A stretch of DNA of 64,000 nucleotides. Origin: Orbilia blumenaviensis. Its lineage: Eukaryota > Ascomycota > Orbiliomycetes > Orbiliales > Orbiliaceae. The translations under genes were made by a program, and so were the position numbers. Below the pieces are notes generated by a model, which made no database searches, was not told the DNA's origin, and worked only from the letters and a program-made list of their open reading frames with translations. The stretch spans positions 186,001 to 250,000 of the forward strand of contig JAVHNS010000003.1 in NCBI GenBank assembly GCA_036872755.1. The letters are read 5' to 3'. Of this stretch, positions 5,896 through 63,558 are shown piece after piece (the first letter of the stretch is position 1; the number at the start of each line of letters is the position of its first letter).

Positions 5896-6568
5896 ATGGA
5901 AATCATGGCTGCTACCTCAAGCATCGAGAACCCGGTCAACTCATTCAAAATACCGATCCGAACTTCGCCAGCCGGGGCTGGTGATCTCCCCTTAGAACTT
6001 CACCAACAGATTCTCTCCTATCTTCCCTGGAGGGACCAGCTCAACTGCGAACATGTCTGCAGAGCCTGGCGCGAGGACCTCCGCGGTCGAATTTCAAAAC
6101 CGCGTGCTACCGTCGCTCCCTGGCTTCCACAGCAGGACTTTGACATCAGCTTCTACGATGTATTGACAGTCCATACGCTTGTCACTAACGGTAAAGCATT
6201 TGCTTTCAAATGTCGTGAAGGATTCAGATTGTTCGATGGAGCTAATGTCGTCACGGATTCTGTCTTCCGCGAACTTGGAGGCAATTTATCTGATATGCCT
6301 GTCGAGGCTATTCCATGCATCTATTCGTTCAATTTTATCGAGAAGACCGGTAAAGGAAAGGATGCCAAGTTCCTGGAGCTTCCAGTGGCCAATCTCTCTT
6401 TCTTGAACGATATGCTTGTCACCCCTGCCTTCGTCGAAGAAGATGAAATCAAGACGTTATACGTTAGTTTCAACCTCCAAGAGCTAGCCCCGGTCGAAGA
6501 TAAGGAAAGCGATCCTGCTGATGCCTCGGACGACGAAATGGTGACGGAGGGGAATGGAAGTGGCGACA

Positions 6569-6611
<43 letters not shown>

Positions 6612-7095
6612 CGGCGGCGATGACGGCGACAATGACGATGACGATGGAGACAGCGACAGCGATGACGGCGGAGACGAAAATAACTGCCCGCCTAGAAAAT
6701 TCATCACATCAAGCCGTTTCACAACAGATGTTAACCTCAATCCAGACGGGGGTAGCACCACCATATACTATCGACTCACTCTTGGGTCTCTCCTCATCAA
6801 GATGCGTGAACACCTTCTCAAACAACTATATATCGCTCAAAATATTGACCCTGACAATGCAACCTATCCTGAGGATCTAGGGGTTGAGGAAATAATGCAA
6901 CTCGACAAGGAGCGGTTGGCTCAAAGAAAAGAGTATGATAATGGTACTGTCATCATCGAACAACTTCAGTTCGTTAGATGCCGCGAGACCCAGGCGTTGA
7001 GTATTACTTTCAACGGCATGATCCTCACAGACGAAGCTTTTCAGCCTCTCAAGGCTTCCAATAGTGACGTTGGTGGGGTGTCGAGCCAAGCCTAA
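5896..7095 (+). CDS. F-box protein 1, with a poly-Asp tract
   Basis: A single exon of 399 aa starting at ATG 5896; a second Met at codon 4 is the alternative start. The F-box is at residues 30-62 (DLPLELHQQILSYLPW, DQL, then VCRAW), the Skp1-binding signature of SCF ubiquitin-ligase receptors. Downstream it carries the plan shared by the F-box genes of this window: a FLNDM motif in place of FLDEP (LPVANLSFLND), then a TLGSLLIKM helix motif. Between these lies an acidic insert with about 14 consecutive Asp residues encoded by (GAT)13, absent from the paralogues. F-box proteins deliver substrates to SCF; the C-terminal part would choose the substrate, which cannot be predicted. It is convergent with F-box gene 2. 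Confidence 0.88.
6571..6609 (+). repeat. (GAT)13 trinucleotide repeat coding poly-Asp
   Basis: Thirteen perfect GAT units lie in frame inside F-box gene 1. They are followed by interrupted GAC/GGC/GAT units that extend the acidic tract. The uniform codon choice indicates recent slippage expansion; length polymorphism would keep the frame. Confidence 0.95.
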
Positions 7096-8271
7096 TTATC
7101 GGACGTCACTAAAGCCTCTAAGCCTCTCTTCAATGCCTGTAGTTTTGCCCATTCACCAAAGCATTTGTTTCCTTTTCTTTACTCGATATTATTTATCCAA
7201 TGAGGCTTTTATCCTTAATTTCTTTCTTTATTATTTTTCTGTTTTTCTTTTGGTTTTTTGTCGTCTTTTTTTTCGTATCCTGCCGGCGAACAGGCCGTTA
7301 AGACAATGTGCTTTCAAAGGCTGGAGCTGTTGCCGCAGAACCTTCCCATTTCCCCCTCTCTTACTTAACATCCTTTATAAAAACCTTACGGCAGAACCAT
7401 TCGATTGTCTCGGTGTGTGTGCCCACACGGTATAGAGGCATTCGTGAGCCTAATAGTACGGTTTACTGCGTCGGGGCGCTTTGTCGTGTCTGATTCTCGT
7501 CGTGTCTGATTCACAAGTTAGTGTTAGACTTAAATTTCTCGTCTCTCCTTCTTTTTCAGATTATTCTCTCCAAAGGAAGTTTTCTTTGAGGGTTACTAAC
7601 GCAATGGAATCTATTCGAATCAAAATTTCCCCCCTGGTTATCACCATGGCGATATCATATTTATGACACGCGATTTCAAAAGTGACAAATTTGGTCCCGG
7701 CTGGTGGTCACAGGTATGAAGATGTGGCAACTAGATAAGGCACGCACCCGCCTCGCAGCCCTTTGTCTAGTGACCCACATACCTAAGGCGCTGCTTATAA
7801 ATATTTAACTGAAATAAACGGAAAGTTTGAACTTTAAAAACCCGAGCAAAAGGAGCAAAAAAAAGTTCATAGGAAGATAGTATATTCTATAACTGAATAG
7901 CGAAGTCCAACAAATAAACAAAGATGCTCCAAGATATGAAAAGGATGTATAGGTACATGTAACTAAATATGAAGGTAAGCGCGCCCGCAAATGATATCGA
8001 AGAAAAAAAGAAATCACAATATAATAATACATAGTCGCTAAGCTTATAAGGTAATAATAAGCAATTATTAACGGATCCTGGTAAGAAAAAGTTGCGCCTT
8101 CCGCCTCCTGATTCTTTACGTCGAATTCGAACGAAAACAACATGTCTATGAAATGATACTCTATTCCTAAATCCCACCTTGATTGTGGATTAAGCGTAAA
8201 GAAAAATAGCCCCATATTTAACCAATTCAGCCCGCGGCCCGAAATAAATGCTCTAGATCTGTTGGAGGTAT
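7096..8271. other. Convergent 3' intergenic region
   Basis: It lies between the stops of F-box 1 (+) and F-box 2 (-). It is T-rich then A-rich, as expected for opposing 3' untranslated regions. The frames here are short and overlap on both strands. No gene seen. Confidence 0.5.
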
Positions 8272-9288
8272 TCAAAAAATTGCGAAAAGTACCACCCCAT
8301 GGTCTTGTGAATCGTCAGGATGCCCCAGGCCGGTCTCTCGTAGTTCGTTTCCGAGTCTCAAAATACGATCCCCGAAACTCTCGGGAATTATGATCCAGAC
8401 ATCCAAATACCACCCCTCTGCAGGATGAGACCCGTCAAAGGCTTCGCGAAAGTCGATACAGAAGTCAGCGACCGAGATCCCAGCCCCGCGAAGCTGCAAC
8501 TTTACAACACTCAAAATTGCGTTGGTCCAGGCTCCGACAGTTGAATTCTTTGGAAGTGCAACCCTTTCCCAGACACTGAACTCGGGCTGTTTGATCTTCC
8601 GTTGGTAATCGTGACCGAAACTAAGGTACATCCGGATAGCATCGTGGTCGGTTTTATTATCGAGCTGAGATACTATAGTCGTGGACCCGGCACCAACTCT
8701 TGGCTCGCCTCGTGCATCTTCTCCCAAGACCCCTTGCGCCTGCCATCCTTCCTCTCCTCTCTCTTCTACTGCTTGTTCTGCTTCCTCTTCTTGCACGCGA
8801 GTGATATGACCAGGATCTGCTTTATTTCTAACCAGCTTAATAGCTTGCGCTTGAGACCTATAACTGAATTTCGAACTAACAGCCATACCTTGCACCCGTT
8901 TCGCTAGCTGCGCAGACCACCAACCGAATCCGTAAATCGGTGAGAACATCGGATCTCTAGCGATTACATCCGAGAGATCAATATAATCAAAGTTGTCTGT
9001 TCTATACAGATGATTGACGATAGCCCCGTCCTTAACTTTACAGCGGCCGTTCCCCTTAGGGGAGATATCAAAGAATCTGTGGACGATAGGGAAATGAATG
9101 TATGGATGTCTTCCGCGGTAGTATCTTGCTGTGCGAAACATTTCGTGTCTTCTTAAGAAACGACGCCAAAGGGAGCAAGTTCTGTATAGACTCGACTGGC
9201 TGCCCATATCCGTGAGATAAGAGAGACATTCCAACTGAATCTCCGTTGGGAGGGAAGTGATCGAGCGGTGGGACGCTGTACCCGACAT
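8272..9288 (-). CDS. F-box protein 2
   Basis: A single exon of 338 aa from ATG 9288. The F-box at residues 11-48 (LPTEIQLECLSYL, then TCSLWRRFL) is diverged in the middle (DMGSQSSLYR) where paralogues have DQ. After it come the ARYYRG...VHRFFD segment, a KVKDGAIV strand, DLSDVIARDP (a degenerate FLDEP position) and STVGAWTNAIL (the TVR-type motif) near residues 255-265, then DFCIDFREAFDG. An Ala/Glu/Gly-rich insert (about residues 167-190, EEEAEQAVEERGEEG) looks like an exonised low-complexity segment or an unspliced intron. An alternative is a small intron there, but no donor/acceptor pair was clearly better. Role inferred: SCF substrate receptor. Confidence 0.82.
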   Translation of the reverse strand: MSGTASHRSITSLPTEIQLECLSYLTDMGSQSSLYRTCSLWRRFLRRHEMFRTARYYRGRHPYIHFPIVHRFFDISPKGNGRCKVKDGAIVNHLYRTDNFDYIDLSDVIARDPMFSPIYGFGWWSAQLAKRVQGMAVSSKFSYRSQAQAIKLVRNKADPGHITRVQEEEAEQAVEERGEEGWQAQGVLGEDARGEPRVGAGSTTIVSQLDNKTDHDAIRMYLSFGHDYQRKIKQPEFSVWERVALPKNSTVGAWTNAILSVVKLQLRGAGISVADFCIDFREAFDGSHPAEGWYLDVWIIIPESFGDRILRLGNELRETGLGHPDDSQDHGVVLFAIF

Positions 9289-12079
9289 CCTTAATTTGTC
9301 CTTTCCGAGCCTACAAGGCTTCTGTCAAACTTTGGTGCACTTGCTTTGGCGGGTATCGAGATGCAAATATGTTATCTGTCTTCTCGCAATGTCAGAACTA
9401 GTTATTTGAGAGTATGAAAGTGAAGATAGAAGCACTTGGAGTCAACTGAGTAAAGAAAAATTGAAAGGGAAAGGGATATTGAAAGGGAGAGGAGAAGTAT
9501 TCAGATCGCTGTTTAGACTGGCCTCGTAAGTTCAGGCTCTTGTTGTCATCTTTTAAAGGGGCTGCATGTTCGTTTGAATCGGAAGATCGCAAAGAGTTCG
9601 TTCCTCGATACGCCTTAGAGATCAATCATCTACGTTACACATGTGCGTACACACAAGTTCTTCAAAAGTTTTGTGTTAAAACAAGTCCATTTAGATTGCC
9701 CAAGCAGTTGAACAAGGGTATCGGGGAGCCCCTCTTTCTTGTGCGACATTAACTATCAGCCTCGTCCGTACACATGTATACAGGAATTTCGTTGATACTC
9801 GCGATATCGAGATACCTCTCCACATCTCAAAAATATTTCATTGCGATAAATGTAGTCAAGTCCGATCCAGTCGTTATCTATCATTTGCTTGTAGGCACAA
9901 TGCAAGATCTAGCTAGGTACACATCTATTCCATCTTAATCATGCTTGCAGGAATACTAAGTTCCCGGGAAACTGCATATTTCGTAACCCCCTGGATAAAC
10001 CTCTCAGCTCCGTTAGCGCACCATCCTCTTTAGTTACATAGGCCACATTCTCTTTGTTCTCAAGCCATCCCGCTAGACCCTTCCGATACCCCATCGCACC
10101 GAGTTACTCGGATTAGCAGGGCTCTGCGATCAATGAATATGATACGTATTCATTCAGTGGCGCAAATTCGGCCGTTCAGCCTACGACCTACATACTCGCC
10201 TTAATGACAACCTTCGCTAAGTTGTAAGTAAGCACAAAACTTGTATACATGCACAGTTGTAACAATTCGTGGGATGTGCTGCGCATCCTGCATCCGCGCT
10301 CAATTAACCCGGGAAAAGACTCCAACCTGACATAACTAAGTTCCACACGTTTTTGTCTTTAATTGATATATCCTATTCGTCCGTTGCCTGATGAACCTTG
10401 GTTAGTTCGTCCGAAGTTAACGCTCGATTACTTGGACGGGAAACTGTCTGATCGATCCCGACCCGCATGAAAGTTTGTGTCAACGCACTCCTCCAACGTG
10501 AACCCGAGCGGCCGAGCTCATACAATTTAAAATTTAAATGCGGTTACCCGGATAGCTATATAGATGAACGAGATAAGAATCGGTCGTGAATAACTGCATC
10601 AAATATTTTGTAGCTAGCTGCACACTCATGCTTACATGTGCTCATTCCCACGAACAGCCAGATTGTGCGGTTAGAAGAGTTGGTCTGCTATAGGCAAGTT
10701 AACTCTAGCCGCAACACATAGTAGAAGGGTACAATATTGATAGCCTCGAATCTAGGTGGACATGCATACGAAAGTATCTTAGAATAATCTTGTAGTAGAC
10801 CAGTTGTAATACTTCTCAGGCTATTCGTCATTTTGTACCTCCCCTGCGCATGCGCCAGACGACTCCGATTTTTCAATTCTTCTGTTTCGTTTCCTCGAAA
10901 TCAGCGATGGGTGGGTGACACGCACAAGGTACCCTTGTTCTCGGATTGTATGTGTTATACAACGAGGAACCCCCAAAGTACCTACTAAGACAGATTCACG
11001 AGTTTGCGTGCTCCTTTACCTTCACGATATTTGATTAATATTGGGAATAATTGGCCTCGTAACCAGCCTCGGACGGGTCACTTCGTGGAACCAGGTGTTG
11101 AACAGAAAGCATTCCCGTCCGATGAGCTCATGTCCTGGCCATCACCTGGCCGCATACCCACCGTGTTGCTTCAGAAGAGGGACTCGAAGGCGACCCACCT
11201 AGAATTTTCAACGTACCCTTCCGATGCCAAATGTGCATGAGAAATGCGGCTCTGACATATCCCGCAGAGCTCAAGACAAACGTAAGCCTCCCATACAGTT
11301 TCACGGTGGCTCTCTTTTCAATATCAACTGGGATCCACTAGACTATGGTACTTACATATATTAGTCCTTTCGGAGATCGTTCTTCCGATTCCAGCAGCCC
11401 GCGAAGGCTACTAGCGAACTATGTGCAGATTTGTTTTTCTATGCGTGCCCGCTGAATCACATGCTGTGGTCGGGGGCGTGTTCTCCTTGATTAGGCTAAA
11501 CTGGTTTTAAAGTTTTAACTTTGCTCATAAGAATATCAGAGCCTGACCTTAACAGTATTCCGTGTCAATTGTAAACTAGTCTGATTGCTTCAACTCCGTT
11601 GTTTGCTTACATATGGATCACCCCAGTCAGAACAAGTTATTTGTTCTAGTCAGTTATATCCTTATAAAGGTCTAGGCCTGCGTAACCCAAGTCAAGCATA
11701 TTTTCTTTATCATCTAGTACGTCGAGCCTGAAAATTAGAAATACAATGTCGGTTGCATCGTGCTAATGGCAAATCGAAGAGCATTTAATATTTCTATGCA
11801 GATATATAATGAACCGCACTAACTGGAAGGTAAGCGCGGGCCTTGCTGTCTGAGGTGCTAAAGGTGCTAAAGACGTTGAAATTGTTGTATTTTGGAGCCA
11901 AGTTTCGTCAGATGTAACTACTAAAGCTGTCTATGAGCACAAGCCCACGGAGTCTGGACGTAAGAGAATGGTTCAGTTTTCGCTGTGTAGAGAGGAGAGT
12001 ATATATCCTGAACGAGAAGTGTATCGGATACACTAGGGGCATGGACTAAGGGAGCTTCAAAGAGGCTGGGTGACAACAC
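9289..12079. other. Gene-poor, stop-rich region (left part)
   Basis: About 2.8 kb with no frame that makes domain sense on either strand. The first few hundred bases hold the promoter of F-box gene 2. The rest is rich in TA dinucleotides by eye and broken by stops, and is continuous in character with the ankyrin pseudogene region to its right. Confidence 0.5.
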
Positions 12080-15560: not shown

Positions 15561-15590
15561 ACAATTAATTAATTGATACGGCAATACTTG

Positions 15591-25547: not shown

Positions 25548-26288
25548 ATGTCCGCCAGAGACAATTCTGCAAACCCATATGCGGATGCATACATCACGGC
25601 CGCGATATTCCACCTTCCCACCGAAATTCACATACAGATCCTTTCAAACCTAAATTCCTTCGTTGACCAAGTCAGCGCCAGCCAAACATGCATTCTCTGG
25701 AACTCAATAATTCACACTCCTTCGCTACTCCAAACCCGCTATGACACTGTTCCAGAGGCGGAGGGGTCAATACCCGGCCCAAAAATCCATAAATTCTTCG
25801 ACACGTCGAATCCCATAACCTGTGTTTTTACAGACGGGGTGGTAACATCGATCACTGTTAAATCCGGGGCTTCCGGTAGTCCTATATCAGTGGCTTCTTT
25901 CCTCAACGAGCCTCTTATAAAACACCCCACGAGCGTACAAAAACCACAGCCTATCTGGGATAGATTCCGACTCTTGCTCCACTCGGTGTCACGCGGGGCA
26001 TTCACCATCCACCAACAGTTATCCTACCGTATCTTCCCATGTAAGAACCCAACTATTCAGGATTGGATCGCTGGAATCCGTGGGCAGCGGAACGCGGCTT
26101 TGGAGAGTCAGGCGGATTTTGCTCCGGACCCTTGGACGCAGACCTTTTGTATTAGTATATCTGGCTTGGAGCCTTGGTCCTTAAATCAGACCTATTACTG
26201 GCAGCGTATTGTAGAACCGACTACTCGGTTGGAAGATGAGCGTTGTCATTTGGTGGTTAATTTAGAGTATGATCATCAAGCCATGTAG
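25548..26288 (+). CDS. F-box protein 3
   Basis: A single exon of 246 aa from ATG 25548, the first ATG in the frame. The F-box is at residues 21-58 (FHLPTEIHIQILSNL, DQVSASQTCILW). The family plan follows: TRYDTV...KIHKFFD at 63-85, VFTDGVV strand at 93-100, SVASFLNEP (FLDEP motif) at 114-122, then NPTIQDWIAGI (TVR-type motif) near 165-175. The remainder, ending in a W/Y-rich segment, is short. Expected to act as a receptor subunit of an SCF ubiquitin ligase; substrate unknown. Its promoter lies in the region shared with the NLR-like gene. Confidence 0.85.
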   Translation: MSARDNSANPYADAYITAAIFHLPTEIHIQILSNLNSFVDQVSASQTCILWNSIIHTPSLLQTRYDTVPEAEGSIPGPKIHKFFDTSNPITCVFTDGVVTSITVKSGASGSPISVASFLNEPLIKHPTSVQKPQPIWDRFRLLLHSVSRGAFTIHQQLSYRIFPCKNPTIQDWIAGIRGQRNAALESQADFAPDPWTQTFCISISGLEPWSLNQTYYWQRIVEPTTRLEDERCHLVVNLEYDHQAM

Positions 26289-27470: not shown

Positions 27471-28079
27471 CTACTTCCTCAATGCCCTCTGGTAGAATGC
27501 CAACTCCTCTCCTTCCAGAACGTAACCGTCAACTCGGCCGCTCTGGCCCGGTCTCGACGAAACGCAAGCGTACAGTCTACCGGCAGCGAACTGGGACTCG
27601 AGAGAGCTCTCGACCTTGGCGGACTTCTGCCTGGCAGCCAATTTCCTCTCAACGGACTTGCTCTTTGGGACCTTCTCTTCCTCAGTCTTTGAGGCAGCAG
27701 CACCCTTCTTCTTTCCAACGGTCTGGCCGTAGTGGGCCTCATACCACTGCCTGAATGGAGCAGCATCGATCTGGACAATGGCGGCCTTGGTCAAGGTGTT
27801 GGTACGGACGAGTTCGTTGTTCGACGGGTGGTAGACGACACCGATGACACGGGTCTTCTTGGCGATTCCCTCAGATCCCCAGGAGAAGTTACCGGATTCG
27901 AGACGGATGGCACGATACTTGGTGTTTCCTCCACGGGTACGGACGAGATGGATACGCTTGGCTCCGATACGGGTGTTGGTGTACTGACGTCCAAGCTCGA
28001 AGGCACGCTTCTTGCGGAACTGGGCGCGTTTGGCACCGGTAGCATTGCGCTTGTGACGGGAGTCGCGAGAGATACCCAT
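27471..28079 (-). CDS. RPS8: 40S ribosomal protein S8 (eS8)
   Basis: A single coding exon of 202 aa (yeast eS8 is 200 aa), near identical in the parts I recall: it begins [20 protein letters not shown] and contains [19 protein letters not shown] and the [12 protein letters not shown] loop. It is a structural protein of the small ribosomal subunit, assembled in the nucleolus. Codon use is strongly biased toward C-ending codons, as expected for a very highly expressed gene and unlike the neighbouring F-box genes. A 5' untranslated-region intron is likely: acceptor TTTCCAG just before position 28093 with a pyrimidine tract, and donor AAG/GTACGA at 28269. SFH5 lies upstream on the same strand. 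Confidence 0.97.
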
Positions 28080-28093
28080 TTTGATGATGTGTT

Positions 28094-28269
28094 CTGGAAA
28101 GAAAGAAAAAGGTGGTTGTTAGTTTCTTGTGGTTGGCCTTTTTTTTTTTCCCTCCTCTCAAGTATTGAATTTGAGATGAAATCGATAAATTGTCAAGACG
28201 TTGATGTTCGATGACAGGTTTCGAAAAAGCACAATTTTCGGACAGGAATTGGAGTAAAAAGTATCGTAC
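28094..28269 (-). other. Probable 5' UTR intron of RPS8
   Basis: On the - strand the sequence reads AAG/GTACGA at 28270-28264 and ends in a long pyrimidine tract with TTTCCAG at 28094, 14 bp upstream of the ATG. A CTAAC branch-like sequence precedes the pyrimidine tract. Introns in the leader are common in fungal ribosomal protein genes; this one is an inference from splice signals. Confidence 0.6.
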
Positions 28270-34008: not shown

Positions 34009-34043
<35 letters not shown>

Positions 34044-35596: not shown

Positions 35597-35631
<35 letters not shown>

Positions 35632-37652: not shown

Positions 37653-38630
37653 ATGAACCGACTGAGCATCATCCGTGGTCACGGCCATAGCCCAAATGTC
37701 GATCCGAAGACCGATATATCTAGCCTACCTCTCGAACTTCATGCAGAGATACTAAGTTCGTTAGGCCATTGGATCCACTATCTCGTTGCATCCCAAGTTT
37801 GCCGGGCTTGGCGTGAACTTCTCAAGAAACATCGTGACCCCTCGGTATATTATCAAGAAGTCTACGTCGTCACCCCACAACCAAGGCTGTTTAACAGGTA
37901 TTCCCCCCATTCACACTCCGTACTCGCTTGCCACCTCGAAAGTACTAAGTAGTAATTAATTAATTAATCGTATTCATAATATAGTAGATCGCGCCTACCA
38001 GGTCGTACCTTTGGGGATGGGCGTCACCTTCTTTTCCAAGAATGCTCGATTGCCTACCGCCGCTGTCCCATTACCAAAGAGCGGCAGATAAAGCTAGCTC
38101 CAACAAAAGACCTTGGATTCTATGATGACCACGCCCTCTGCTACTTTCCTACCCGTGCGGAAAGGCCCAAGTTTTATGACTTCAACTACTTTTCTTTACT
38201 CTCCCATAAAATTGCAACCGATGGCGAATCGCGTCCTTACAAAATTAATCCGTCATGTGTTCTCGGGTTCCGCCAGATGTGCCTTAAAAGAAAGATACCA
38301 ATGCTGGACGATAATAATGAATACATGGTCCTCGGTGCTGTTCTCGACCTCATCCTCGATACTTATAAGCAATGCTTTGAGTTTAGCTGCACCAGCTGTG
38401 CGAATAAATTCGATGCGAAAAACCAGAGAAGGTACCACTTAAACGGTGATGAAAAATACGACGGTATTGATACCGAAAGTTGGGATTTTGGGGACTGGGA
38501 GAAAGCTGGATACGAAGAGTTCGCAAAACAATGCAACGAATTCGGCGTCATTATACAAGAACAGGAGAAGCATAGTAGACCAGGGCTTATCTTTCTAAGA
38601 GTTTGCCCTGGAGACAGTTGGGCATGGTAA
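37653..38630 (+). CDS. F-box protein 4, with CxxC insert
   Basis: Two exons, 37653-37897 and 37985-38630, encode 296 aa. The start is the first ATG of the frame (37653). The F-box is at residues 22-57 (DISSLPLELHAEILSSL, then VASQVCRAWRELL). The intron (phase 2) falls after the PQPRLFN segment that corresponds to the RY...H part of paralogues. The second exon has YMVLGAVLDLIL (position of the TVR helix motif) followed by FSCTSCANKF, a Cys-x2-Cys pair, then a Trp/Asp/Glu-rich stretch (TESWDFGDWEKAG). The FLDEP motif is not recognisable, so this is one of the most diverged members. First of three F-box genes in tandem. Role inferred: SCF substrate receptor. Confidence 0.8.
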
Positions 38631-39227: not shown

Positions 39228-40265
39228 ATGTCACAACAACAGGCGCCTACGGGAGTGCGCTCACTTCCCGTCGAACTTCATATCATGATTCTTTCATATC
39301 TCTCATACCTCGATCATATAGCCTGCGAAGCTGTATTGCCTGTATGGTACGACCTAGTCACCGATCCTGCCACATTTTCACGGCGCTACACTCGATCTAA
39401 ATTACGGTATACAATGACACACCCGGACGAGCGATATTTAATACATGGTCTTATTCGGGATTGTTATTTTTTTGTTCATTCGGTGCCCGAGTCCAAACGG
39501 GCCGTAGAAAACCCGGGTTCAATGACAGTTACAATTATACCTATAACATCGGTTAGCTCCAACGAAGCAGATCAATATCCCAGCAACCTATATTTCTTAG
39601 ACAAAAACCAGTTTGGATCTCGTCTAATTTCTAGTATACCGGGTGCAATGACATTTACAGATCCTCCATTCCTTGATGATGCGGTTTGGTGCGACGCTCG
39701 TGGCCTGTCGCCTGAAGAGGAGCCGGAGTGTGATATTTGGTTTTATCCGATAGGTTGTAGCCACCGCTTGCCATCAATCGTGACAACGGTCCACGGTTTC
39801 ACCATCAGAAATATGCTTTCAAGGTGCATCTCTAACGCAAAGAAGGCGTCAGAGATAATGGCAAATGGCTGTAGCAAATGCTGGAATGCCCGCAAGGACA
39901 AATCTGCCGAACAACTCGCGAATGATTTTAATTTACAGCCTGTATACATTCGGCGAGCCCATCTCCGAGGCTGGACATATCGGAACCCGAGCAAAGACTG
40001 GATGGGGATGTTTGCATTTGAGAGATATTTTGTCAATGTCCAAGATCTGGATGATGGAGAGATCTGTGGCAAAATAGTCAAGCCCTGGCATTGGACGTCG
40101 TTTTGGAATCAAATAATCTACGACGGTGACAGTTGGGTACCGACGAGTGAAGGAACGAGCTGTATCATTTTTGGAGTCGATGATCTCAAGCATAAGCAAA
40201 ATGTTGTGGAAGGGACTCGGGAAGGTTATTTCTGGTGGCGTGGGAGGACGAGAACGGGGGAATGA
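39228..40265 (+). CDS. F-box protein 5
   Basis: A single exon of 345 aa from ATG 39228. The F-box is at residues 11-43 (SLPVELHIMILSYLSYLDHIACE, ending in the diverged AVLPVWYDL). Next come SRRYTRS and YLIHGLIRD (the RY...H segment, 51-78), TFTDPPFLDDAVW (FLDEP motif) and GFTIRNMLSRCISNA (TVR motif). Then NGCSKCW, a Cys-x2-Cys pair like that of F-box 4, and a C-terminal half rich in Trp (WTYRNPSKDW, KPWHWTSFW, GYFWWRGR) not seen at this density in the others. Product inferred to be an SCF receptor subunit. It follows F-box 4 on the same strand. Confidence 0.85.
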   Translation: MSQQQAPTGVRSLPVELHIMILSYLSYLDHIACEAVLPVWYDLVTDPATFSRRYTRSKLRYTMTHPDERYLIHGLIRDCYFFVHSVPESKRAVENPGSMTVTIIPITSVSSNEADQYPSNLYFLDKNQFGSRLISSIPGAMTFTDPPFLDDAVWCDARGLSPEEEPECDIWFYPIGCSHRLPSIVTTVHGFTIRNMLSRCISNAKKASEIMANGCSKCWNARKDKSAEQLANDFNLQPVYIRRAHLRGWTYRNPSKDWMGMFAFERYFVNVQDLDDGEICGKIVKPWHWTSFWNQIIYDGDSWVPTSEGTSCIIFGVDDLKHKQNVVEGTREGYFWWRGRTRTGE

Positions 40266-40812: not shown

Positions 40813-41604
40813 ATGCCTATAAGCACCATCCCCACGGAGCTACTTACTCACATTTTTTCCTTCCTCCCCTGGCAAGACCATCTAACCGCATCCCAAGTTT
40901 GCCGTCTGTGGTATTCCATCTTTCTCTCTCCACCCATAAAGTCGAACCGCTATGTCCTAGTAGACCCCCAAACCACCCTTTGCCCTCGAATGCACAATCT
41001 TTTCTGGGACATCGGCCTCGAGTGCACCGTCAATGTCTTCACCGGAGATGTTTCCAAAATTATCTTTGTTCTGAATGAGAACGAAGGAATCCAAGACGAC
41101 CAGGATCGGGCAGAGGCAACAGTTGATCTAACTAAAAGCGAAATCATCGAGGAGCGGCTCCTCCATTTCCATGGATGGAGGTACGAAGATAATATAAAAG
41201 ATCAACAATGGAAAATGGGGGTTTGCATCATGTGGAATCAACTAGGCTACGAATATGGTAGTCAGAAAGACCGCCAGTTCTATAGACAGGATTGGTTTCA
41301 ATTCGTCCGAGGAGATGGCGAGGCAGGCGAGGCAAGCGAGGCCCCTGATGAAATTGTGCGCGGCGAAGTGGACCTAGATATCTCGGTTAAAGGATTCATT
41401 AGTGTTCTTGCGAAACATGTCCTTAAATTCGATGCACTGAAGACACAGGGAAAGCCTGAGATGAGGCTTAGACTAGGGATGTACGATCGAATGGGAATTG
41501 TTGTTATACGGAATGTGCGGGAGGCTTCGAAGGTTTTTGATCTTAGCCTGGATCTATTCGATGGAATCCATACCGATAAGGATCGAAAGTGGATCAGCGA
41601 GTAG
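40813..41604 (+). CDS. F-box protein 6
   Basis: A single exon of 263 aa from ATG 40813. The F-box begins almost at the N terminus (STIPTELLTHIFSFLPWQDH, then TASQVCRLWYSIFL, residues 4-38) and is close to the consensus. SNRYVLVDPQTT...PRMHNLFWD (45-66) is the RY...H segment, followed by ECTVNVFTGDV. The FLDEP motif is weak or absent; the TVR-type motif is DISVKGFISVLAKHV near residues 195-210, followed by a short beta-rich tail (EMRLRLGMYDRMGIVVI). Its 3' end converges on the MFS transporter gene 237 bp away. Role inferred as for the other F-box genes. Confidence 0.86.
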   Translation: MPISTIPTELLTHIFSFLPWQDHLTASQVCRLWYSIFLSPPIKSNRYVLVDPQTTLCPRMHNLFWDIGLECTVNVFTGDVSKIIFVLNENEGIQDDQDRAEATVDLTKSEIIEERLLHFHGWRYEDNIKDQQWKMGVCIMWNQLGYEYGSQKDRQFYRQDWFQFVRGDGEAGEASEAPDEIVRGEVDLDISVKGFISVLAKHVLKFDALKTQGKPEMRLRLGMYDRMGIVVIRNVREASKVFDLSLDLFDGIHTDKDRKWISE

Positions 41605-50782: not shown

Positions 50783-51355
50783 CCACACCTCCCCATCGAA
50801 GACCAAATATGTGCCGCCGGAGTTGCGAAAGGTGGAACAGTATCTTTCTCTTCAAGTAAATGCAAAGATCACGATACGGTCCTAGCTCTGAATGTCCCGT
50901 CCAATGTTTGTATTGCTTGATTCCAACAAGATCTCAACCCTTCTGCTACGATTGTAAAGATAATGGCTCTCGAGACTACTTCCTCAAAGGGCGCCATTTG
51001 GAGGATACAAATCTGGTCCCAGACGAATCTCTCTTCTCATCTGTGGCTTGGAACGGCGAAGACCTATTAGATGAGTTGAAAGCTGGTCTATATAAGAACA
51101 TATTCACAGTCTCTTATCGCAGCTGGCGCGGAGCCAAATACTATGGAGAAAGTTTTACAGTTCGGCTATTCCTTGAAATGCTGCTAAAGCCAGTTCTTGA
51201 TGCCGGGGAAAATAGGAAGCCCAATTTCAATGATGTTCTCGCTATTTTCGATACCCAAGCGCATCCCTTGCACAAGTCGAGCTTAGTATTGTTCCTTTTT
51301 GTTTTTCGGGAGAATATTTTGGTCAAACTCCAACCACTCTCTATACTGCTCCTCT
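50783..51355 (+). pseudogene. F-box family pseudogene, frameshifted and truncated
   Basis: The F-box is recognisable as HLPIEDQICAAGV in one frame (50786-50824), continuing as CERWNSIFLFK in another, so one base is missing near 50822. A TAA stop at 50857-50859 follows, then MQRSRYGPS, which aligns with the QKMRY segment directly after the F-box in F-box 8. The frame then stays open: a Cys cluster (CPVQCLYC, FCYDC) and GESFTVRLFLEMLLKPV, the family TVR motif, at about 51153-51200. From about 51283 it runs antisense into the tail of intact F-box 7 and resemblance is lost. It is an inactivated paralogue; the truncation point coincides with the end of the opposing gene. Confidence 0.78.
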
Positions 51356-52050
51356 GACCTTTTGACAACCATGCCGGCAAATACATGGCTGGTAACGAAG
51401 GCTGGTAGAGGCTTTCTCTCGCGATCGAATTTTGTCAGCTCATACAAGGAAAACACCACCTCCTGAAGCGAATCCGTTTGTACTCCACCCTCCTCCATAT
51501 AGAATTGTGCATTTTTGACAAACCCGTGGATGAGATCTTTGACCGTTGTGGTGTTTGGGCACTCAATATCTTGTAGGCCACTAGTTCTGGCCTCGTAAAA
51601 GATACACATGCTTCCTGTGATCCCTAGTTCTGTTTCGCCAAAGTATTCGGGGTCCCTGCTATCGAGAAATCCAACTGGCGGCTCGTCAAGAAACGCGCTA
51701 TTGGAAATGTCTTTCGTGTTGTAATGTGAGGTTTTATCGTCGTCATTTTCGGTCCGTCTGTGCGTGAACGACAGCCTGTAGCATTGAACGGTCCCATTTT
51801 GGACTGTGCAGCTTAACCTATATTTATCTGCTGGTAATAGGAGCTTATGAGTGGGAGGAAGTGCCCCGTTCTTCTCGCTAGATTTGTATCTCCCCAACTG
51901 AGCGGGCCTTGTGAGGAGGAGGTCGCGCCAGAGAGAACATGTTTCTGCTGCTACTATTTGGTCCCTGATTTCGAATAGGTATGATAAAATATGAGAGTGA
52001 AGCTCAGAAGGGAGATTAAGAATCGACATAGTTCTCAACGCCAAATCCAT
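51283..52050 (-). CDS. F-box protein 7
   Basis: A single exon of 255 aa from ATG 52050; a second Met (codon 8) sits just before the F-box. The F-box is at residues 9-45 (SILNLPSELHSHILSYLFEI, DQIVAAETCSLWRDLL). This member shows the family plan most clearly: GRYKSSEKNG...THKLLL (53-72), SCTVQNGTVQCYRL strand pair (80-93), DISNSAFLDEPPVGF (114-128) and NTTTVKDLIHGFVKNA (166-181). The tail is Lys/Glu-rich and short. It is tail to tail with, and overlaps, the F-box pseudogene on the other strand. Role inferred: SCF substrate receptor of unknown target. Confidence 0.88.
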   Translation of the reverse strand: MDLALRTMSILNLPSELHSHILSYLFEIRDQIVAAETCSLWRDLLLTRPAQLGRYKSSEKNGALPPTHKLLLPADKYRLSCTVQNGTVQCYRLSFTHRRTENDDDKTSHYNTKDISNSAFLDEPPVGFLDSRDPEYFGETELGITGSMCIFYEARTSGLQDIECPNTTTVKDLIHGFVKNAQFYMEEGGVQTDSLQEVVFSLYELTKFDRERKPLPAFVTSHVFAGMVVKRSEEQYREWLEFDQNILPKNKKEQY

Positions 52051-55093: not shown

Positions 55094-55963
55094 ATGGCGA
55101 CGATACTTACTCTCCCCGTCGAACTCCAAGCACATATTTTCTCTTTCCTCTCCTTTTGCGACCAGGTACCAGCGAGTCGAGTCTGCCGCTTATGGGAAAA
55201 CATCTTCTTAAATCCTCAATTCCAAAAGATGAGATATACTGGTCTCGCCGACAACAAATTATTCGGCATTCATCGATACTTTATTGGTGATTACCACAAT
55301 TCCATTTCTTTCAGTTGTGAAATCAATCAGGACGACAGCAAGATTTCCAAGTTTCTCATCATACGCCCCAGTTACGAAGTCGTAGGGTTAGGTTCGGACG
55401 GGTATATCCGAGAACTCGTCGCGGATATTTCCGATAGTCCGATTCTAGATGAACCATTCTTCTCGCCATTTGTTGATATGGAAGCTGTTCGCGCTGGAGC
55501 CGCGAAAGGGATCCCTCAAATTTCACAGTTGTCACTGGATGGGGTAGATGGAAGTGATGTCGACAAAGAGATTCGCTCGGACCAAGAGCAGCTTCGGGGT
55601 TTTCTCAGAATGAAGCAAAAACGGATTACGGTCGGTATCTGGGTCGCAACCCCCTCGGAAGGCATGATCGTTGAGAACGAATTTTCCTATTCACCTTGTG
55701 AAGGAGCAACAGTTCGGCAGACCATGCAGAGGGTCTGGGGTCTGCTATTTCCGATGATTCGAGAATCAACAATAGAGTTTGTGGCACCGTTCCAGATCGA
55801 CTTTGACGGATTCTATTGCCCTACTGGTGATTACCTAATGGTTGTCTTGAGGAATGGTGTTTACAAATCTCGGAAGGACCATCACTCGGGGCTGAAAACG
55901 CCTGTTATATTAGAAGACGAGGGAAAATGGGGTTCACTTGTAGAATTGATAGGTGATTTCTAG
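55094..55963 (+). CDS. F-box protein 8
   Basis: A single exon of 289 aa from ATG 55094. The F-box starts at residue 5 (LTLPVELQAHIFSFLSF, DQVPASRVCRLWENIFL, to 39). QKMRYTGLADN...GIHRYFIGD (45-66) is the RY...H segment. DISDSPILDEPFFSPF (111-126) is the FLDEP motif, GATVRQTMQRVWGLL (204-218) the TVR motif, followed by FQIDFDGFY, a strand with an FDG turn that recurs in F-box 10 as VKFDGIR. The even spacing of these pieces makes it, with F-box 7, the best template for the family. Inferred SCF substrate receptor. It is followed on the same strand by the thiolase-like gene, with a separate promoter region between. Confidence 0.88.
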   Translation: MATILTLPVELQAHIFSFLSFCDQVPASRVCRLWENIFLNPQFQKMRYTGLADNKLFGIHRYFIGDYHNSISFSCEINQDDSKISKFLIIRPSYEVVGLGSDGYIRELVADISDSPILDEPFFSPFVDMEAVRAGAAKGIPQISQLSLDGVDGSDVDKEIRSDQEQLRGFLRMKQKRITVGIWVATPSEGMIVENEFSYSPCEGATVRQTMQRVWGLLFPMIRESTIEFVAPFQIDFDGFYCPTGDYLMVVLRNGVYKSRKDHHSGLKTPVILEDEGKWGSLVELIGDF

Positions 55964-58695: not shown

Positions 58696-59423
58696 TTTAG
58701 TCTTGGAGATATTGCTAGTGATATTTCGGAGATATCTGTTTTAGTAGGACTACCACCATATCAGTGCCATGAGTGTATGTCGGGTATTTGTGAAGTTTTA
58801 TTTGGGGCAATTTTGGCACAAATTTGGGGGTATAAATGCCAATAAAATATCAGAGACAACCCCCGTTTTTCTGTGATTTTATCTTCTCTGTATCTGGTTT
58901 GTGGCACGTTGCACCGATAAAGAGGCCCCTCTGCCGAAGAATAGGCCTAATGGCCCATGATTCGATGCTCATGTGGAGGTTAATGGCGGACCAAGCAAGT
59001 GTATCAGATACCAAGACTTGTGCTGCATCTCCAACTTGCATCCGGGCCTGGAAGGGCCCTGGCCGCGATGTACGAACAGCATAGAAACCCTGGTAAAACT
59101 TGAACCTGTTCTTTATTCTTCGATCTAGCAGGTTCGAAAGCGCTAAGGTGCGATGCCCTTATAACTATCTAGGTTTCACTAGTTCCATAGATGTGTTAGA
59201 ATAGAATGATAAGCCGTTAAAGGCGTTGTAGTTTTGTGGGACCGTTAATTCGTGAACGCATAACTATGCTAAGTGTGATAAAACCGAAAAGGCCTATCCT
59301 AAACGCGAAGACGTGTTTGAAGTAAGAAACGGCCAGGAATGCTATTCGTGAAACAGGCGTCGAAAGACCAGTTGAATGCGCATGCTAGTAGGAAAATGAT
59401 GAGCACTATTGAAAACCCTCCAC
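58696..59423. other. Convergent 3' intergenic region
   Basis: It lies between the thiolase-like gene (+) and F-box 9 (-). Short frames only; no gene seen. Confidence 0.45.
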
Positions 59424-60812
59424 TTAATAACAGATCTCCCACACCCAATCACTCACAGGTGTCAAAGCCACGTGCATATGGTCCATCTTAGTATCTTTCC
59501 TCCATTCCCTCATATACCAAAACCCTTTCTCCTGATATTGAGCTAATAACTCCCTTTCCTTAACAACAATCTGACTGATATTAAGTGGCCTCCGAAATCC
59601 ATTGTCCATGTCCCAGTCACCATCGTAGTCAACCCCAGTAATCCATTTTTGAAACACGTTTTTTCCATTCCAACGTTCGTTTTGTTCGAGGGCAGTATCT
59701 TCGTACCAATGACGTGGCGATTCTAGTTTCCCCATAACGGCTAAGAGGAAGCTACCTAGGTCCCATGGGCGGTAATATTTGAGACTTTTACCGAAGGCGA
59801 CGCGGGCGTGAGGAGAGCTAAGAGCGCGGCCGAAAAGGGTAGGCTGGAGAGGCCCACTAGGGAAAGGGACCGGAAGTGATGGAGCGACAACTTGGGCTGT
59901 ATTAGCGGTAGAGAAGCGCCCGCCAATCTTGAAGGAAAATTCATTTCTTAGGGGCTCTGGATCGAATTCAATGGTAATACTAGGAACATCGATACGACCA
60001 CTGAAAGAAGTGCTGGTGTAGACCGCGATTGGGTCGTTGAGGAACGTTAAGTTGGCGAGTTTGAAGCGTCGAGGCCGTTCGTAAGGATTAGCGGGGAAAT
60101 ATGTTGACATCAGCTCTACAGAGCATCGTGTGCCCGGAATCTGGCGGAAGGCGAAGTTTCCATCCTGGAGGAGGCGATGGATAAGAATCTTTGGTTTTTC
60201 AAGTTGGAGTGGTGGAGGTATTTTGTCTTCGGGCCGGGTCCGTTTCGGGTTGGCAGGTTTCTTCCTATCTGGTTCATTGGCCTTGATTCCGGTAAAGCAT
60301 GAATCGTTGATAGTCGTATAACGAAAGCCAGCACAATCTCGCCGAATTATCGTCCGCCAGGTCGTACACACGCGTTCGCATACAAGCTGGTCGACGAACG
60401 ATACATACTTAAGGATCTCGGCGTGCATTTCTGCTGGCAGGCAGGTAATATCCGTCCTCTTGCCTGGGATTTGACGAAACCATTGCCCGGGAGGTCCTTT
60501 GGCTATGATCTCCCTCTCGAGCTCGGCGAGGGTCTGAGTAGGGATTCGTAGGGATGGGTACTCTTCAAGTGGCTTCGCTTCGAGCTCAAATAGAAAGTAG
60601 TGATTCTGGGTTGGTGACCCTGGTTTTGCTGGTCCTTGGACTGTGTTCGAGTCATAGTCGTGGTCAATGGTGTCTGGGACCGGTATTAGGGACGAGTAGC
60701 GAAGCTCAGCTGGTTTCCCGGACCCCTCAGGAGGAATTAGGCTACTGAAGCTGGAAGCCTTCTGGGAAGATAGCGCCCGTTTCGATGCCCCGTCGGTGTC
60801 CATGGCAGACAT
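59424..60812 (-). CDS. F-box protein 9, with long N-terminal extension
   Basis: A single exon of 462 aa from ATG 60812, the only ATG in the upstream part of the frame. Residues 1-115 are a Ser/Pro-rich extension absent from the other members. The F-box is at 119-157 (TDITCLPAEMHAEILKYVSF, DQLVCERVCTTWRTII). GFRYTTINDS and KILIHRLLQDGNFAF form the RY...H segment, split by a Pro/Lys-rich insert (DRKKPANPKRTRPEDK). KLANLTFLNDPIAVY is the FLDEP motif and PWDLGSFLLAVMGKL the TVR position. FRQIPG occurs twice, before the F-box and after the RY...H segment, which may reflect an internal duplication. The end is Trp-rich. Inferred SCF substrate receptor. Confidence 0.85.
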   Translation of the reverse strand: MSAMDTDGASKRALSSQKASSFSSLIPPEGSGKPAELRYSSLIPVPDTIDHDYDSNTVQGPAKPGSPTQNHYFLFELEAKPLEEYPSLRIPTQTLAELEREIIAKGPPGQWFRQIPGKRTDITCLPAEMHAEILKYVSFVDQLVCERVCTTWRTIIRRDCAGFRYTTINDSCFTGIKANEPDRKKPANPKRTRPEDKIPPPLQLEKPKILIHRLLQDGNFAFRQIPGTRCSVELMSTYFPANPYERPRRFKLANLTFLNDPIAVYTSTSFSGRIDVPSITIEFDPEPLRNEFSFKIGGRFSTANTAQVVAPSLPVPFPSGPLQPTLFGRALSSPHARVAFGKSLKYYRPWDLGSFLLAVMGKLESPRHWYEDTALEQNERWNGKNVFQKWITGVDYDGDWDMDNGFRRPLNISQIVVKERELLAQYQEKGFWYMREWRKDTKMDHMHVALTPVSDWVWEICY

Positions 60813-62508
60813 TAGGTATATATTCTTCAGGAATGTAGGGACAGATACCACGTGCGATATAGCTTCCACGGAATCTATATAAATCGGTTTAGTAAAGTCT
60901 CTAATTGTAATCAAAAACGAGAATCTTTAGTATTTAGGGGATTCTTCAAGAAACAACTAGGGGGATATATACCTTTTTGACTGTGTAGAAGCTTGCCGTA
61001 GCCTAGATTGACGTTCTGTTAATTGTTTGCTTGTAGCAAATGGAGATAGCTGGCTGGTTAATCGTCCCAGAAACGCAAAGTTAGGAGGTCGGATTCGAGA
61101 TGAATGTGGAAAATGTGATGTGACTAATGAATCGATGGCGATGATGATGATGATGATAATGACAGTTATGCATGGAAGATGGGCAAGAAGTACTGTCGTG
61201 TGATGAAGGCGGATTGAGCCCTGTCAAGGGAAGCCGCAGATATCTGTAGCTGGCCGTCATTTCAGTGGAAGAAGCCGTGGCCTTGTGTAACACGCAGTTT
61301 TGTGTTGTTGGTGTTGTCGATGTGCACGAAGCTGCCAGAACAACACATCTGCCCCGATGATCCCTCTTTCCGTTCCAGCCGCCGTACGGAAGGGCCAGAG
61401 CTTTAAAGCAGTATCTTAGCTTGGCTTAGAGCTTCACGGTCGGGAAGCTTAGAGGGCACATAATAAAGCTCGAGAGCGACCTGAATATCTTGCGGCATGG
61501 CATCGATCTCTAGGCAGATAACAGGCGGAATCTCCAGGTAGTGCTGCTGGCTCCATGGCCATGGATGCGGACGCTGGATGGCTGGCTAGTTGACTGGCTT
61601 GACAGAGCTGACCGGATTCGATTCCGTATACGCGTAGGGAGGTAGGTACCTAGATAGTAGCTACTCGGGAGGACGAATTCAGGAGACAAGGATTGATCAT
61701 GAAGCTGAAACAGGTCGAAATCGCTGAAAGGATGCTGGATACTAATTATAAGGACCAACTGAATCGATATCAAAACTCAGTATGCAATTGTTGCCACATA
61801 TAGCCACACTTACCTGACAGATTTCCCGTCGCTGCCCAAACAAGCCTTTGTATGACTCGTCCACCAGAATCCGATCTAAATGTCGTACTGAAAGGTGCTC
61901 GAGGTCGAAATGTTGGCTGTTGGAATCGACGCGGGTGGCAGGCGATTTTAAGGTCGTCTCAGCAGGATCCAAGTCGACCAGGCTGGTTCTACAAGAAAAA
62001 GCACTGGCTGTGGGGCTGCACCAACAATGCCAGCCCAACGAGGCTGCCCTGCCACAATGGCCTCCAATTCAGCTTAAGAGGTGCAAGGATCAACGGGAAG
62101 CCGCAGTTTCTGGTTTAAAGTTTCGACCATTTTTGGCCGGGTAGCTCGCCTTTGAACTTCGAAACTCTCGCGAGCCGTGTGGGTCCCGAGATCCGGACCT
62201 ACATATAAAGTGTGTAGCCTGGAATATATACTCGCGATTATGTGAAAATGCTTAACCAGTTTGTGAATTACTTAAGAGAAGGATACATCAAGATATAGAC
62301 AGTGCTAGAAAGAATATTCTAAGAAATATATGTGTACATGTAATATAAATTATGAGTTAAAATGGTAAAACGCCAAATTCGTTGCGAAAAATCAGCATCA
62401 TAGCACCATTGTAAGTAACCCCGACTCGAGCTCCACCAAACAAACAGCCTATCCCGATTAATCCTGTAAATTAATGGAAGAATTCTAGAACGTTATCCAG
62501 TTTCGTTC
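60813..62508. other. Intergenic region
   Basis: F-box 9 promoter on the left and F-box 10 3' end on the right. A GAT/ATC microsatellite lies near 61133-61156. An 88-codon frame at 61852-62118 (+) and an overlapping antisense frame have no family resemblance. Confidence 0.45.
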
Positions 62509-63558
62509 TCAAGCCCCGAAGGGAAACGGTTCCTCTTCCACCCAATTTACCCCCTGGTATATCTCTAATTCGATCCTGCCCCCTGTTTCAAAGTCGAAAA
62601 ACCCATGTGATATATACTTCATATACTCCTGTATCCTTATACCGTCGAACTTTACAAAGAAAACCTCGCCTCCTTCCTTTAAATCCGGTTCCAATCTCTT
62701 AATAGTAGTTACCGACTGCGTAATAGCCCTAATAAGCTGGCGAATAGTGATCGGATTGTCCGGCTCGAAATCCAGCTCTGAGAGTCGTCGTAAGTACTTC
62801 TCGGTTCCCATCCGCGGATTGTATGGGCTTGTTCTCCTTGCAGATTTGAAACTCTCAAATCCCCGGCCATATATGATATCCGTATCACACATCGGGGTGT
62901 TGAATATTCTTTCATTCCAATGCCAATCTGCATTCAACTGAATTGCAAACCGCCCTCTCTCGCTGAAAAAAATTTCTTCTCTTTCGTCATCGCTATCAAT
63001 CGAATCCTCGGAGCTACTTTCGTGATCTATCGATAGCTCAGGCAGTAGCAAGCTCCCCTTACGCCCTCCCAAAGGGTTTGGGCGCAAATGGAGATCCTTG
63101 TTCCCAATGAGGAAAAACCCCTGTGGCGCTGACCCCCTATGTAAGGAGGTGTGTTTATTTTGAGGTCCGACGGTGATGAAAAATCCAATAGAGTGTTCAG
63201 CTTCATGCATAAACCTATGAAGGAGAACTGTAGGATTTCGATTCAGGATGATATCTTGTGATATGATTCTTACGGAATCGTCTTCCTCGCCTTCGTCTGT
63301 TGATATGCTAACGGTGATCTGGGCCGAAGCCATACTGAAGTCGCGTATTAGTCGCGTATCATGCCGACTCTTGAATTTCTTCATATTTGTCGGTTCAGGA
63401 AGTTGTTGATTTGAGATATATCGCCTATTGTGGGCTTTTGACTTTGCAAGATAGTCCTTCCAGCGACGGCATACCTGCGAGCAGGAGGTAGTTTCTGTCC
63501 AATCGACCTCGTCGAGGACTTTGAATTCGATTTCGAGTGGAAGGTTCTCGTAACCCAT
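62509..63558 (-). CDS. F-box protein 10
   Basis: A single exon of 349 aa from ATG 63558; the frame runs further upstream without an ATG. The F-box is at residues 3-37 (YENLPLEIEFKVLDEVDW, SCSQVCRRWKDYL). NRRYISNQQLPEP...TRLIRDFS (44-72) is the RY...H-like segment. A strand with acidic turn (ITVSISTDEGEEDD) and IISQDIILNRNPTV, a worn FLDEP position, follow. A Ser/Asp/Glu-rich insert lies near residues 185-205 (HESSSEDSIDSDDEREEI). PITIRQLIRAITQSV is the TVR motif and FVKFDGIRIQEY the FDG strand. The start of the next gene to the right, if any, lies outside the window. Inferred SCF substrate receptor. Confidence 0.86.
   Translation of the reverse strand: MGYENLPLEIEFKVLDEVDWTETTSCSQVCRRWKDYLAKSKAHNRRYISNQQLPEPTNMKKFKSRHDTRLIRDFSMASAQITVSISTDEGEEDDSVRIISQDIILNRNPTVLLHRFMHEAEHSIGFFITVGPQNKHTSLHRGSAPQGFFLIGNKDLHLRPNPLGGRKGSLLLPELSIDHESSSEDSIDSDDEREEIFFSERGRFAIQLNADWHWNERIFNTPMCDTDIIYGRGFESFKSARRTSPYNPRMGTEKYLRRLSELDFEPDNPITIRQLIRAITQSVTTIKRLEPDLKEGGEVFFVKFDGIRIQEYMKYISHGFFDFETGGRIELEIYQGVNWVEEEPFPFGA

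What the first reader, a model, noticed from the sequence alone, without database searches (positions are those of the whole stretch)
5896..63558. Ten F-box genes plus a pseudogene share an apparently unnamed C-terminal domain
Seen in the sequence: after the F-box, the members keep four pieces in the same order. (1) An RY...H-hydrophobic-hydrophobic segment, e.g. GRYKSS..THKLLL, MRYTGL..IHRYF, TRYDTV..IHKFF, FRYTTI..LIHRLL, NRYVLV..MHNLF. (2) A strand such as TVQNGTVQCY or VFTDGVVTSI. (3) A FLDEP-like motif: ISNSAFLDEP, ISDSPILDEP, SVASFLNEP, LANLTFLNDP, VANLSFLND, TDPPFLDD. (4) A TVR-type helix: TVKDLIHGF, TVRQTMQRV, TIRQLIRAI, TIRNMLSRC, TIQDWIAGI, TVRLFLEML, STVGAWTNA, SVKGFISVL. Overall identity is low, so this would be missed by a pairwise search that only reports the F-box. 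Inference: a lineage-expanded family of SCF receptors with a common, fast-diverging target-binding domain, probably local duplication followed by dispersal and inversion.
Basis: partly seen in the sequence, partly recalled or inferred. Interest (0 to 1): 0.82.

Follow-up and report, generated by a model that had tools for sequence, protein, structure and literature searches.

The report
Fast-diverging F-box family in nematode-trapping fungi
Most of the ten F-box genes in this stretch of a nematode-trapping fungus's genome share, behind the F-box, an unnamed and quickly changing domain that probably picks proteins for destruction; the family is real, but it resembles F-box expansions already known from worms.

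Summary
The observation largely holds. The window (Orbilia blumenaviensis, contig 3, from 186 kb off a telomere) has ten F-box loci. A C-terminal profile seeded with seven sequences of one outside gene, and grown by E-value on non-window sequence only, ranks 8 of 10 window C-termini above at least 99.2% of their own shuffles; 0 of 44 other F-box C-termini reach p<0.05. The gene at 5896 joins only with a wider, hand-picked profile; 37653 never joins. Two genes found by C-terminus alone carry F-boxes by the family's profile, though Pfam sees one weakly and the other not at all. No Pfam or PDB-sequence relative of the domain was found. The seed gene's C-terminus is 72-83% identical in five species, so the domain is constrained there, while family paralogues are at noise level pairwise. 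Recent local duplication is not supported. Best reading: SCF substrate receptors with a private, quickly diverging target-binding domain. F-box expansion in these fungi is already in print; Caenorhabditis FBA2/FTH families are a close parallel. A remote link to DUF6699 is possible, unproven.

The parts
5896..7095 (+). F-box gene; TVHTLV 6166-6183, FLNDM 6400-6414; long aspartate run; C-terminal membership uncertain
   Evidence: Pfam F-box-like 35.1 bits; hand-picked profile 1 of 600 shuffles, E-value-grown profile 151 of 1000; motifs
8272..9288 (-). F-box gene; RYYRG 9112-9126, VHRFF 9070-9084, ARDPMFSP 8938-8961 (weak motif 3), STVGAWTNA 8518-8544
   Evidence: profile 4 of 1000 shuffles
25548..26288 (+). 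F-box gene; RYDTV 25737-25751, IHKFF 25785-25799, VFTDGVVTSI 25824-25853, FLNEP 25899-25913, TIQDWIAGI 26052-26078
   Evidence: profile 0 of 1000 shuffles
37653..38630 (+). F-box gene with a proposed 87-nt GT..AG intron at 37898-37984; C-terminus not shown to belong to the family
   Evidence: F-box 29.4 bits in the first exon; intron proposed; profile 691 of 1000 shuffles
39228..40265 (+). F-box gene; RYTMT 39405-39419, IHGLI 39441-39455, FLDDA 39669-39683, TIRNMLSRC 39801-39827
   Evidence: profile 2 of 1000 shuffles, 52 of 1000 in the untrimmed version
40813..41604 (+). F-box gene; RYVLV 40948-40962, MHNLF 40990-41004, VNVFTGDVSKI 41029-41061, SVKGFISVL 41383-41409; motif 3 not found by pattern
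   Evidence: profile 8 of 1000 shuffles
50806..51357 (+).
   Evidence: E 0.051; p 0.008, 0.187, 0.005 in three profile versions; no Pfam match
51283..52050 (-). F-box gene; RYKSS 51877-51891, THKLLL 51835-51852, TVQNGTVQCY 51778-51807, FLDEP 51679-51693, TVKDLIHGF 51520-51546
   Evidence: profile 0 of 1000; C-terminal relative at C1:112375-112905, 35%, E 5.4e-11
55094..55963 (+). F-box gene; RYTGL 55232-55246, IHRYF 55268-55282, ILDEP 55442-55456, TVRQTMQRV 55709-55735
   Evidence: profile 0 of 1000; one outside homologue at E<=1e-3, Arthrobotrys megalospora, 41%
59424..60812 (-). F-box gene; RYTTI 60309-60323, IHRLL 60168-60182, FLNDP 60030-60044; motif 4 not found by pattern
   Evidence: profile 8 of 1000
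62509..63558 (-). F-box gene; RYISN 63409-63423, TRLIRDF 63337-63357, ILNRNP 63232-63249 (weak motif 3), TIRQLIRAI 62722-62748
   Evidence: profile 3 of 1000; paired with the gene at C3:265 kb in the tree

Best explanation
Eight (possibly nine) of the ten genes belong to one F-box family of Orbiliaceae, with at least 15 further members in this genome (7 loci recruited by E-value, 7 more at p<0.01, and the gene at C1:112 kb). The N-terminal F-box should bind Skp1 and dock the protein on a Cullin-1 ubiquitin ligase. The shared C-terminal domain (short strands holding RY, H and C...G, a strand ending in FLDEP, a loop that tolerates insertions, then a TVR helix and further strands) would bind the target. 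Its frame motifs are kept while the rest diverges almost to noise, as expected if each paralogue recognises a different or changing protein. Shown: the F-box, the common domain, and constraint on it in one conserved member. Inferred: Skp1 binding, target binding and ubiquitylation. Target unknown.
For: F-box at all ten loci. C-terminal profile grown without window sequence: 8 of 10 window members, 0 of 44 controls at p<0.05; the five best of 396 window ORFs are all family genes. Two genes outside the 148-match F-box list were found by C-terminus alone: L034:2-823:- (the 1 of 506 background ORFs recruited, with 0 of 1,600 shuffles and 0 of 46 other F-box C-termini; the 1 of 413) and C1:112375-112905. 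Their N-termini score 43.9 and 34.3 bits on the family F-box profile, 0 of 2,000 shuffles each, and the C-terminus of the second scores 20-24 bits on the E-value-grown profiles, 0 of 1,000 shuffles. Core members against the rest by profile-profile: probability 96%, E 3.9e-9 over 70 columns from RY to FLDEP; the rest were picked by eye. The conserved member C13:1077194 has a C-terminus 72-83% identical in five species, F-box 71-76%; R70, Y71, H85, G102, F129, L130 and T183 are among the invariant columns of 10 aligned sequences. Model of that member: ten-residue blocks from 31 to 140 average pLDDT 60-93, the TVR helix 181-210 63-85. Ten F-box loci in 64 kb against 0.22 expected from 148 in 42.46 Mb (arithmetic).
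Against: Six of the eight supported window genes score only 0.9 to 8.3 bits; 5896 and 37653 fail. The seed is not wholly independent: the conserved member was first noticed by its motifs, and its orthologues were fetched with a profile that held three window genes. Of 19 hand-picked outside members left to test, 9 reach p<0.05 and 10 do not. Pfam sees no F-box in the C1:112 kb gene and only a weak one (E 0.024, under the cut-off) in L034:2-823. No fold is established: mean pLDDT 60.6, residues 141-170 and 218-279 under 50, no clear PDB match beyond the F-box; no window member was modelled. No expression, Skp1 or target data.
Confidence: 0.6

Rival explanations
1. The shared C-terminal domain is a far-diverged form of the named but uncharacterised fungal domain DUF6699 (PF20415), so it is not a new domain family.
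For: By recall, DUF6699 has a proline-containing motif followed by a TV-type helix, the same order. One F-box protein of this genome outside the hand-picked family (L032:2819-3661) matches DUF6699 at E 2.9e-4; 13 of the 14 rows of its orthologue alignment match at E<=10, best 3.8e-5; a hand-picked member, L054:1301-1981, matches at E 0.013.
Against: The scores seen (21.5, 20.9 and 16.1 bits) lie below the curated cut-off of 24.1. The two matches among the 37 ORFs are L032 and L054, so none of the nine window genes there matches; nor does any of 13 C-termini scanned alone. Profile-profile comparison with the L032 group gives probabilities of 0.2, 0.3 and 1.1% (P 0.27, 0.18, 0.051) over 17-25 columns at the TV helix, only slightly above control pairs at 0.0-0.2%. 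L054 does not pass the family profile (p 0.12). The L032 model is too poor to compare (mean pLDDT 55). A six-frame search of the genome with PF20415 found nothing, and nothing in the control genomes either, so it decides nothing.
Confidence: 0.25
2. There is no common domain: the motifs are chance resemblances picked by eye among low-identity sequences.
For: Pairwise C-terminal identity is near that of shuffles (median 19% against 18%); a profile of nine window C-termini hardly separates outside members from decoys; four single C-terminal searches of the genome found only themselves.
Against: Profile grown without window sequence, with own-shuffle and other-F-box controls; two genes found by C-terminus alone that carry F-boxes by the family profile; motifs kept in orthologues of other species.
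Confidence: 0.04
3. A few members (like C13:1077194) are working receptors and the rest are relaxed, drifting copies, so the divergence reflects loss of function and not choice of target.
For: Extreme divergence; motif 3 or 4 not found by pattern in 40813 and 60812; an acidic run inserted in 5896; a probable decayed fragment at 50806-51357; one outside homologue of 55094 at E<=1e-3, while the L032 query found 13 other clusters.
Against: Nine of ten window genes keep single open frames of 246-462 residues; motifs survive while the rest is scrambled.
Confidence: 0.2

Closest known systems
Caenorhabditis F-box families with FBA2 or FTH C-terminal domain
   Same: N-terminal F-box plus a divergent lineage-private C-terminal region taken to bind substrate, large expansion, C-termini under less constraint than F-boxes (PMC8665587, passages seen)
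   Different: No FTH or FBA2 match in the nine window genes scanned whole; those families grew largely by tandem duplication, which the tree here does not show; smaller numbers here
F-box as an expanded Pfam family in nematode-trapping fungi
   Same: Same class of fungi; F-box is a row in Table 2, on expanded Pfam families, of PMC3828140 (passages seen)
   Different: The passages seen count F-boxes and mention no C-terminal domain; supplementary tables were not read
DUF6699 (PF20415), fungal domain of unknown function
   Same: Order of motif and TV-type helix (recalled); two F-box proteins of this genome match it weakly
   Different: No window gene matches; profile comparison near controls
F-box proteins with LRR or WD40 C-termini
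   Same: SCF receptor layout
   Different: No LRR or WD40 match in the nine window genes scanned whole; such-looking genes of this genome were among the negative controls

Membership tests
F-box proteins (PF12937/PF00646) | F-box motif over the curated score | tested here: met
   All ten loci are over the PF12937 cut-off in the genome search. In single-protein scans 6 of 9 whole proteins are over it and 9288, 39228 and 63558 are just under (22.5-23.6 of 24.3); the first exon of 37653 is over it (29.4)
SCF substrate receptors | Binding to Skp1 and ubiquitylation of a target | not testable with these tools
   Inferred from the F-box only
One common C-terminal domain family | A profile without window sequence finds the window members above their own shuffles and above other F-box C-termini | tested here: met
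   8 of 10 window genes, 0 of 44 controls; not met for 5896 and 37653
One common C-terminal domain family | Same predicted fold in different members | not tested
   One family member was modelled; the second and last job went to the L032 group
DUF6699 (PF20415) | Match over the curated cut-off of 24.1 bits | tested here: not met
   None of nine window genes matches at E<=10; the best score seen is 21.5 bits, in an F-box protein outside the family
Caenorhabditis FBA2/FTH F-box families | FTH or FBA2 domain behind the F-box | tested here: not met
   No such match at E<=0.1 in the nine window genes scanned whole or in the second exon of 37653
Known solved folds | C-terminal region matches a PDB fold | tested here: inconclusive

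The most novel reading that the evidence does not exclude
The family is a private recognition arsenal of nematode-trapping fungi: SCF receptors whose C-terminal domain keeps a fixed frame and varies its loops to mark foreign or selfish proteins (mycoviruses, transposons, non-self alleles, or proteins from captured nematodes) for destruction, with one conserved member kept for a housekeeping target.
Probability: 0.1. Interest if true: 0.7.

Novelty: new member of a known kind. Interest (0 to 1): 0.42.

Why it matters
The genome search listed 148 F-box matches; how many have a named C-terminal domain was not counted. Showing that a good number share one hidden domain turns a set of F-box hypothetical proteins into one family with a conserved reference member (C13:1077194; P0019-P0024) on which structure, Skp1 binding and targets can be tested. 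If the loops prove to be under diversifying selection, it would be a fungal parallel to the F-box expansions of worms.

Tried and rejected
A profile from nine window C-termini: little separation from decoys. DUF6699 as the domain's identity: guessed from motif order, then matched by L032 and L054 but by no window gene; profile comparison and model gave no support; the genome search with PF20415 was empty everywhere and decides nothing. Recent local duplication: not supported by the tree. C-terminal searches of the own genome with 25548, 40813, 60812 and L067 found only themselves. PDB sequence search with the C-terminal profile: one antibody chain at E 0.14. In the fold comparison no family beyond the F-box stood out. 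The recalled idea that broad Pezizomycotina F-box families carry the same domain was not tested. That I found the domain nowhere in print rests on paper searches; of the papers listed I saw passages of PMC3828140 and PMC8665587, and of the rest only listings.
Full report
Where it is. The window is bases 186,001-250,000 of contig 3 of a 42.46 Mb, 23-contig genome. A protein identical to a fetched one and lying on a contig of the same length (3,689,394) is named TWF730 of Orbilia blumenaviensis, an ascomycete of the Orbiliaceae, whose relatives trap nematodes. Contig 3 carries TTAGGG repeats at both ends, so the window begins 186 kb from a telomere. Between the F-box genes lie a DnaJ/zuotin-like piece and a zinc-finger piece (962-2578), an ankyrin-repeat protein, ribosomal protein S8e (27474-28118), a weak CRAL-TRIO match below its cut-off, a DUF2470 protein and a thiolase-like piece.

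Check of the observation. The PF12937 search listed 148 matches in the genome, ten in the window, about 45 times the mean density by simple arithmetic. Pfam showed no C-terminal domain in the nine window genes scanned whole or in the second exon of 37653 at E<=0.1, apart from two sub-threshold matches to the acidic run of 5896. Pairwise, the C-termini of the 34 hand-picked members are no more alike than shuffled ones (median 19% against 18%, 561 pairs; F-box 33%), so profiles have to decide.

Profile tests. A profile of 25 hand-picked outside members finds three window genes at E 1.3e-6, 1.9e-5 and 7.6e-4, then mixes with decoys. Since picking by motif is circular, a second line was run: the seed was seven sequences of one outside gene (its own annotated protein, five named species, one unnamed source), iterated at E<=0.02. 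This seed is not wholly free of choice: the gene was noticed by its motifs, and its orthologues were fetched with an eight-sequence profile that held three window genes. With the window in the database it recruited the genes at 51283-52050, 55094, 40813 and 63558, eight outside F-box ORFs including the seed gene's own locus, and one of 506 background ORFs; none of 46 other F-box C-termini and none of 1,600 shuffles. With the window left out it recruited seven non-window sequences, one of them the seed's own locus and one the same background ORF. After trimming that ORF to its C-terminus, the 14-sequence profile puts 8 of 10 window C-termini above at least 992 of 1,000 own shuffles, with 0 of 44 control F-box C-termini at p<0.05; without that ORF the eight range from 0 to 12 of 1,000. 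5896 and 37653 fail in all three versions. The untrimmed version was weaker for 39228 (52 of 1,000), and 2 of 44 controls fell under 0.05. Of 19 hand-picked outside members not in the profile, 9 reach p<0.05, so my eye was too generous for the rest, or they have drifted too far. A 34-sequence profile that includes hand-picked members gives 9 of 10, with 2 of 44 controls under 0.05. Among 396 window ORFs the 14-sequence profile's five best are family genes; below that members mix with others.

Two finds by C-terminus alone. The background ORF, L034:2-823:-, is not on the F-box list; it reads as an F-box gene with RY, H and a VDEP motif, its end cut by the locus edge. The C-terminus of the 51283-52050 gene, searched alone, found one other place, C1:112375-112905, 35% over residues 12-193, E 5.4e-11, also not on that list; its 258-residue frame shows RYQPTG, IHNLFF, CVVKDGAVT, FLDEP and TVRDFL in order. 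Pfam sees only a weak F-box in the first (E 0.024) and none in the second. A profile of the 34 family F-boxes, which holds neither, scores their N-termini 43.9 and 34.3 bits, 0 of 2,000 shuffles each; the second's C-terminus scores 20-24 bits on the E-value-grown profiles. Four other C-terminal searches found only themselves, which shows how far most members have drifted.

The pseudogene. Profile p-values are 0.008, 0.187 and 0.005 in three versions, and Pfam finds nothing. A decayed copy is plausible, not shown.

Conservation and turnover. C13:1077194 has orthologues in five named Arthrobotrys/Orbilia species; its C-terminus (72-83%) is as conserved as its F-box (71-76%), so the domain is under selection there. 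The window gene 55094 has one outside homologue at E<=1e-3, in A. megalospora, with 57% F-box and 34% C-terminal identity, while that species' versions of C13:1077194 and of the L032 gene show 77% and 61% in their C-termini. The tree joins the pair (99/96), but true orthology is not proven.

History. In a tree of 39 sequences (124 columns; 4 of 36 inner branches starred, 25 open) window and neighbouring genes are spread among genome-wide members: 8 label changes against a shuffled mean of 10.2, with 39 and 47 of 500 shuffles as low. One local pair, 63558 with the gene at C3:265 kb, is starred but flagged as long branches meeting. Recent local duplication is not shown; old local duplication is not excluded.

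Fold. An AlphaFold2 model of C13:1077194 with 21 sequences has mean pLDDT 60.6: F-box and the strands from RY to FLDD at block means of 60-93, the TVR helix 63-85, the loop 141-170 and the tail 218-279 under 50. PDB comparison finds the F-box; the rest shows only weak likeness to ATP-grasp-type subdomains, within chance. No window member was modelled.

Link to a named domain. The order of motifs recalled DUF6699. One F-box protein outside the family (L032) and its orthologues match it weakly (13 of 14 rows, best 3.8e-5), and one hand-picked member, L054, at E 0.013. Window genes do not, and the profile comparison is only slightly above controls. I keep this as a rival at 0.25.

Function. The simplest reading is an SCF substrate receptor family: F-box for Skp1, C-terminal domain for the target. 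That is inference from the F-box. The nearest parallel is the Caenorhabditis FBA2/FTH families (PMC8665587, passages). F-box is a row among expanded Pfam families of nematode-trapping fungi (PMC3828140, passages). What is new here is the hidden common domain, not the expansion.

Noticed in passing
L032:2819-3661: F-box protein (its annotated version P0005 has two F-box stretches) with a weak DUF6699 match, found in 13 other Orbiliaceae protein clusters; 13 of 14 aligned rows match DUF6699.
   Followed up: partly
L034:2-823: A further F-box family gene next to C5:1242517, missed by the genome F-box list and found by its C-terminus.
   Followed up: yes
L072:254-1030: F-box family gene at C1:112 kb, near a telomere end, the closest C-terminal relative found for the window gene at 51283-52050; Pfam does not see its F-box.
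   Followed up: yes
L017, L020, L037, L049: A separate, much better conserved F-box family of this genome, with mutual C-terminal E-values down to 2.4e-70; LRR-like by eye only; among the controls.
   Followed up: no
window:5896-7095: Long aspartate run inside the C-terminal region; L029 has a long serine run before its TVR motif, so this loop seems to tolerate repeats.
   Followed up: no
   Followed up: no
window:18626-21343: Ankyrin-repeat protein of 906 residues among the F-box genes.
   Followed up: no
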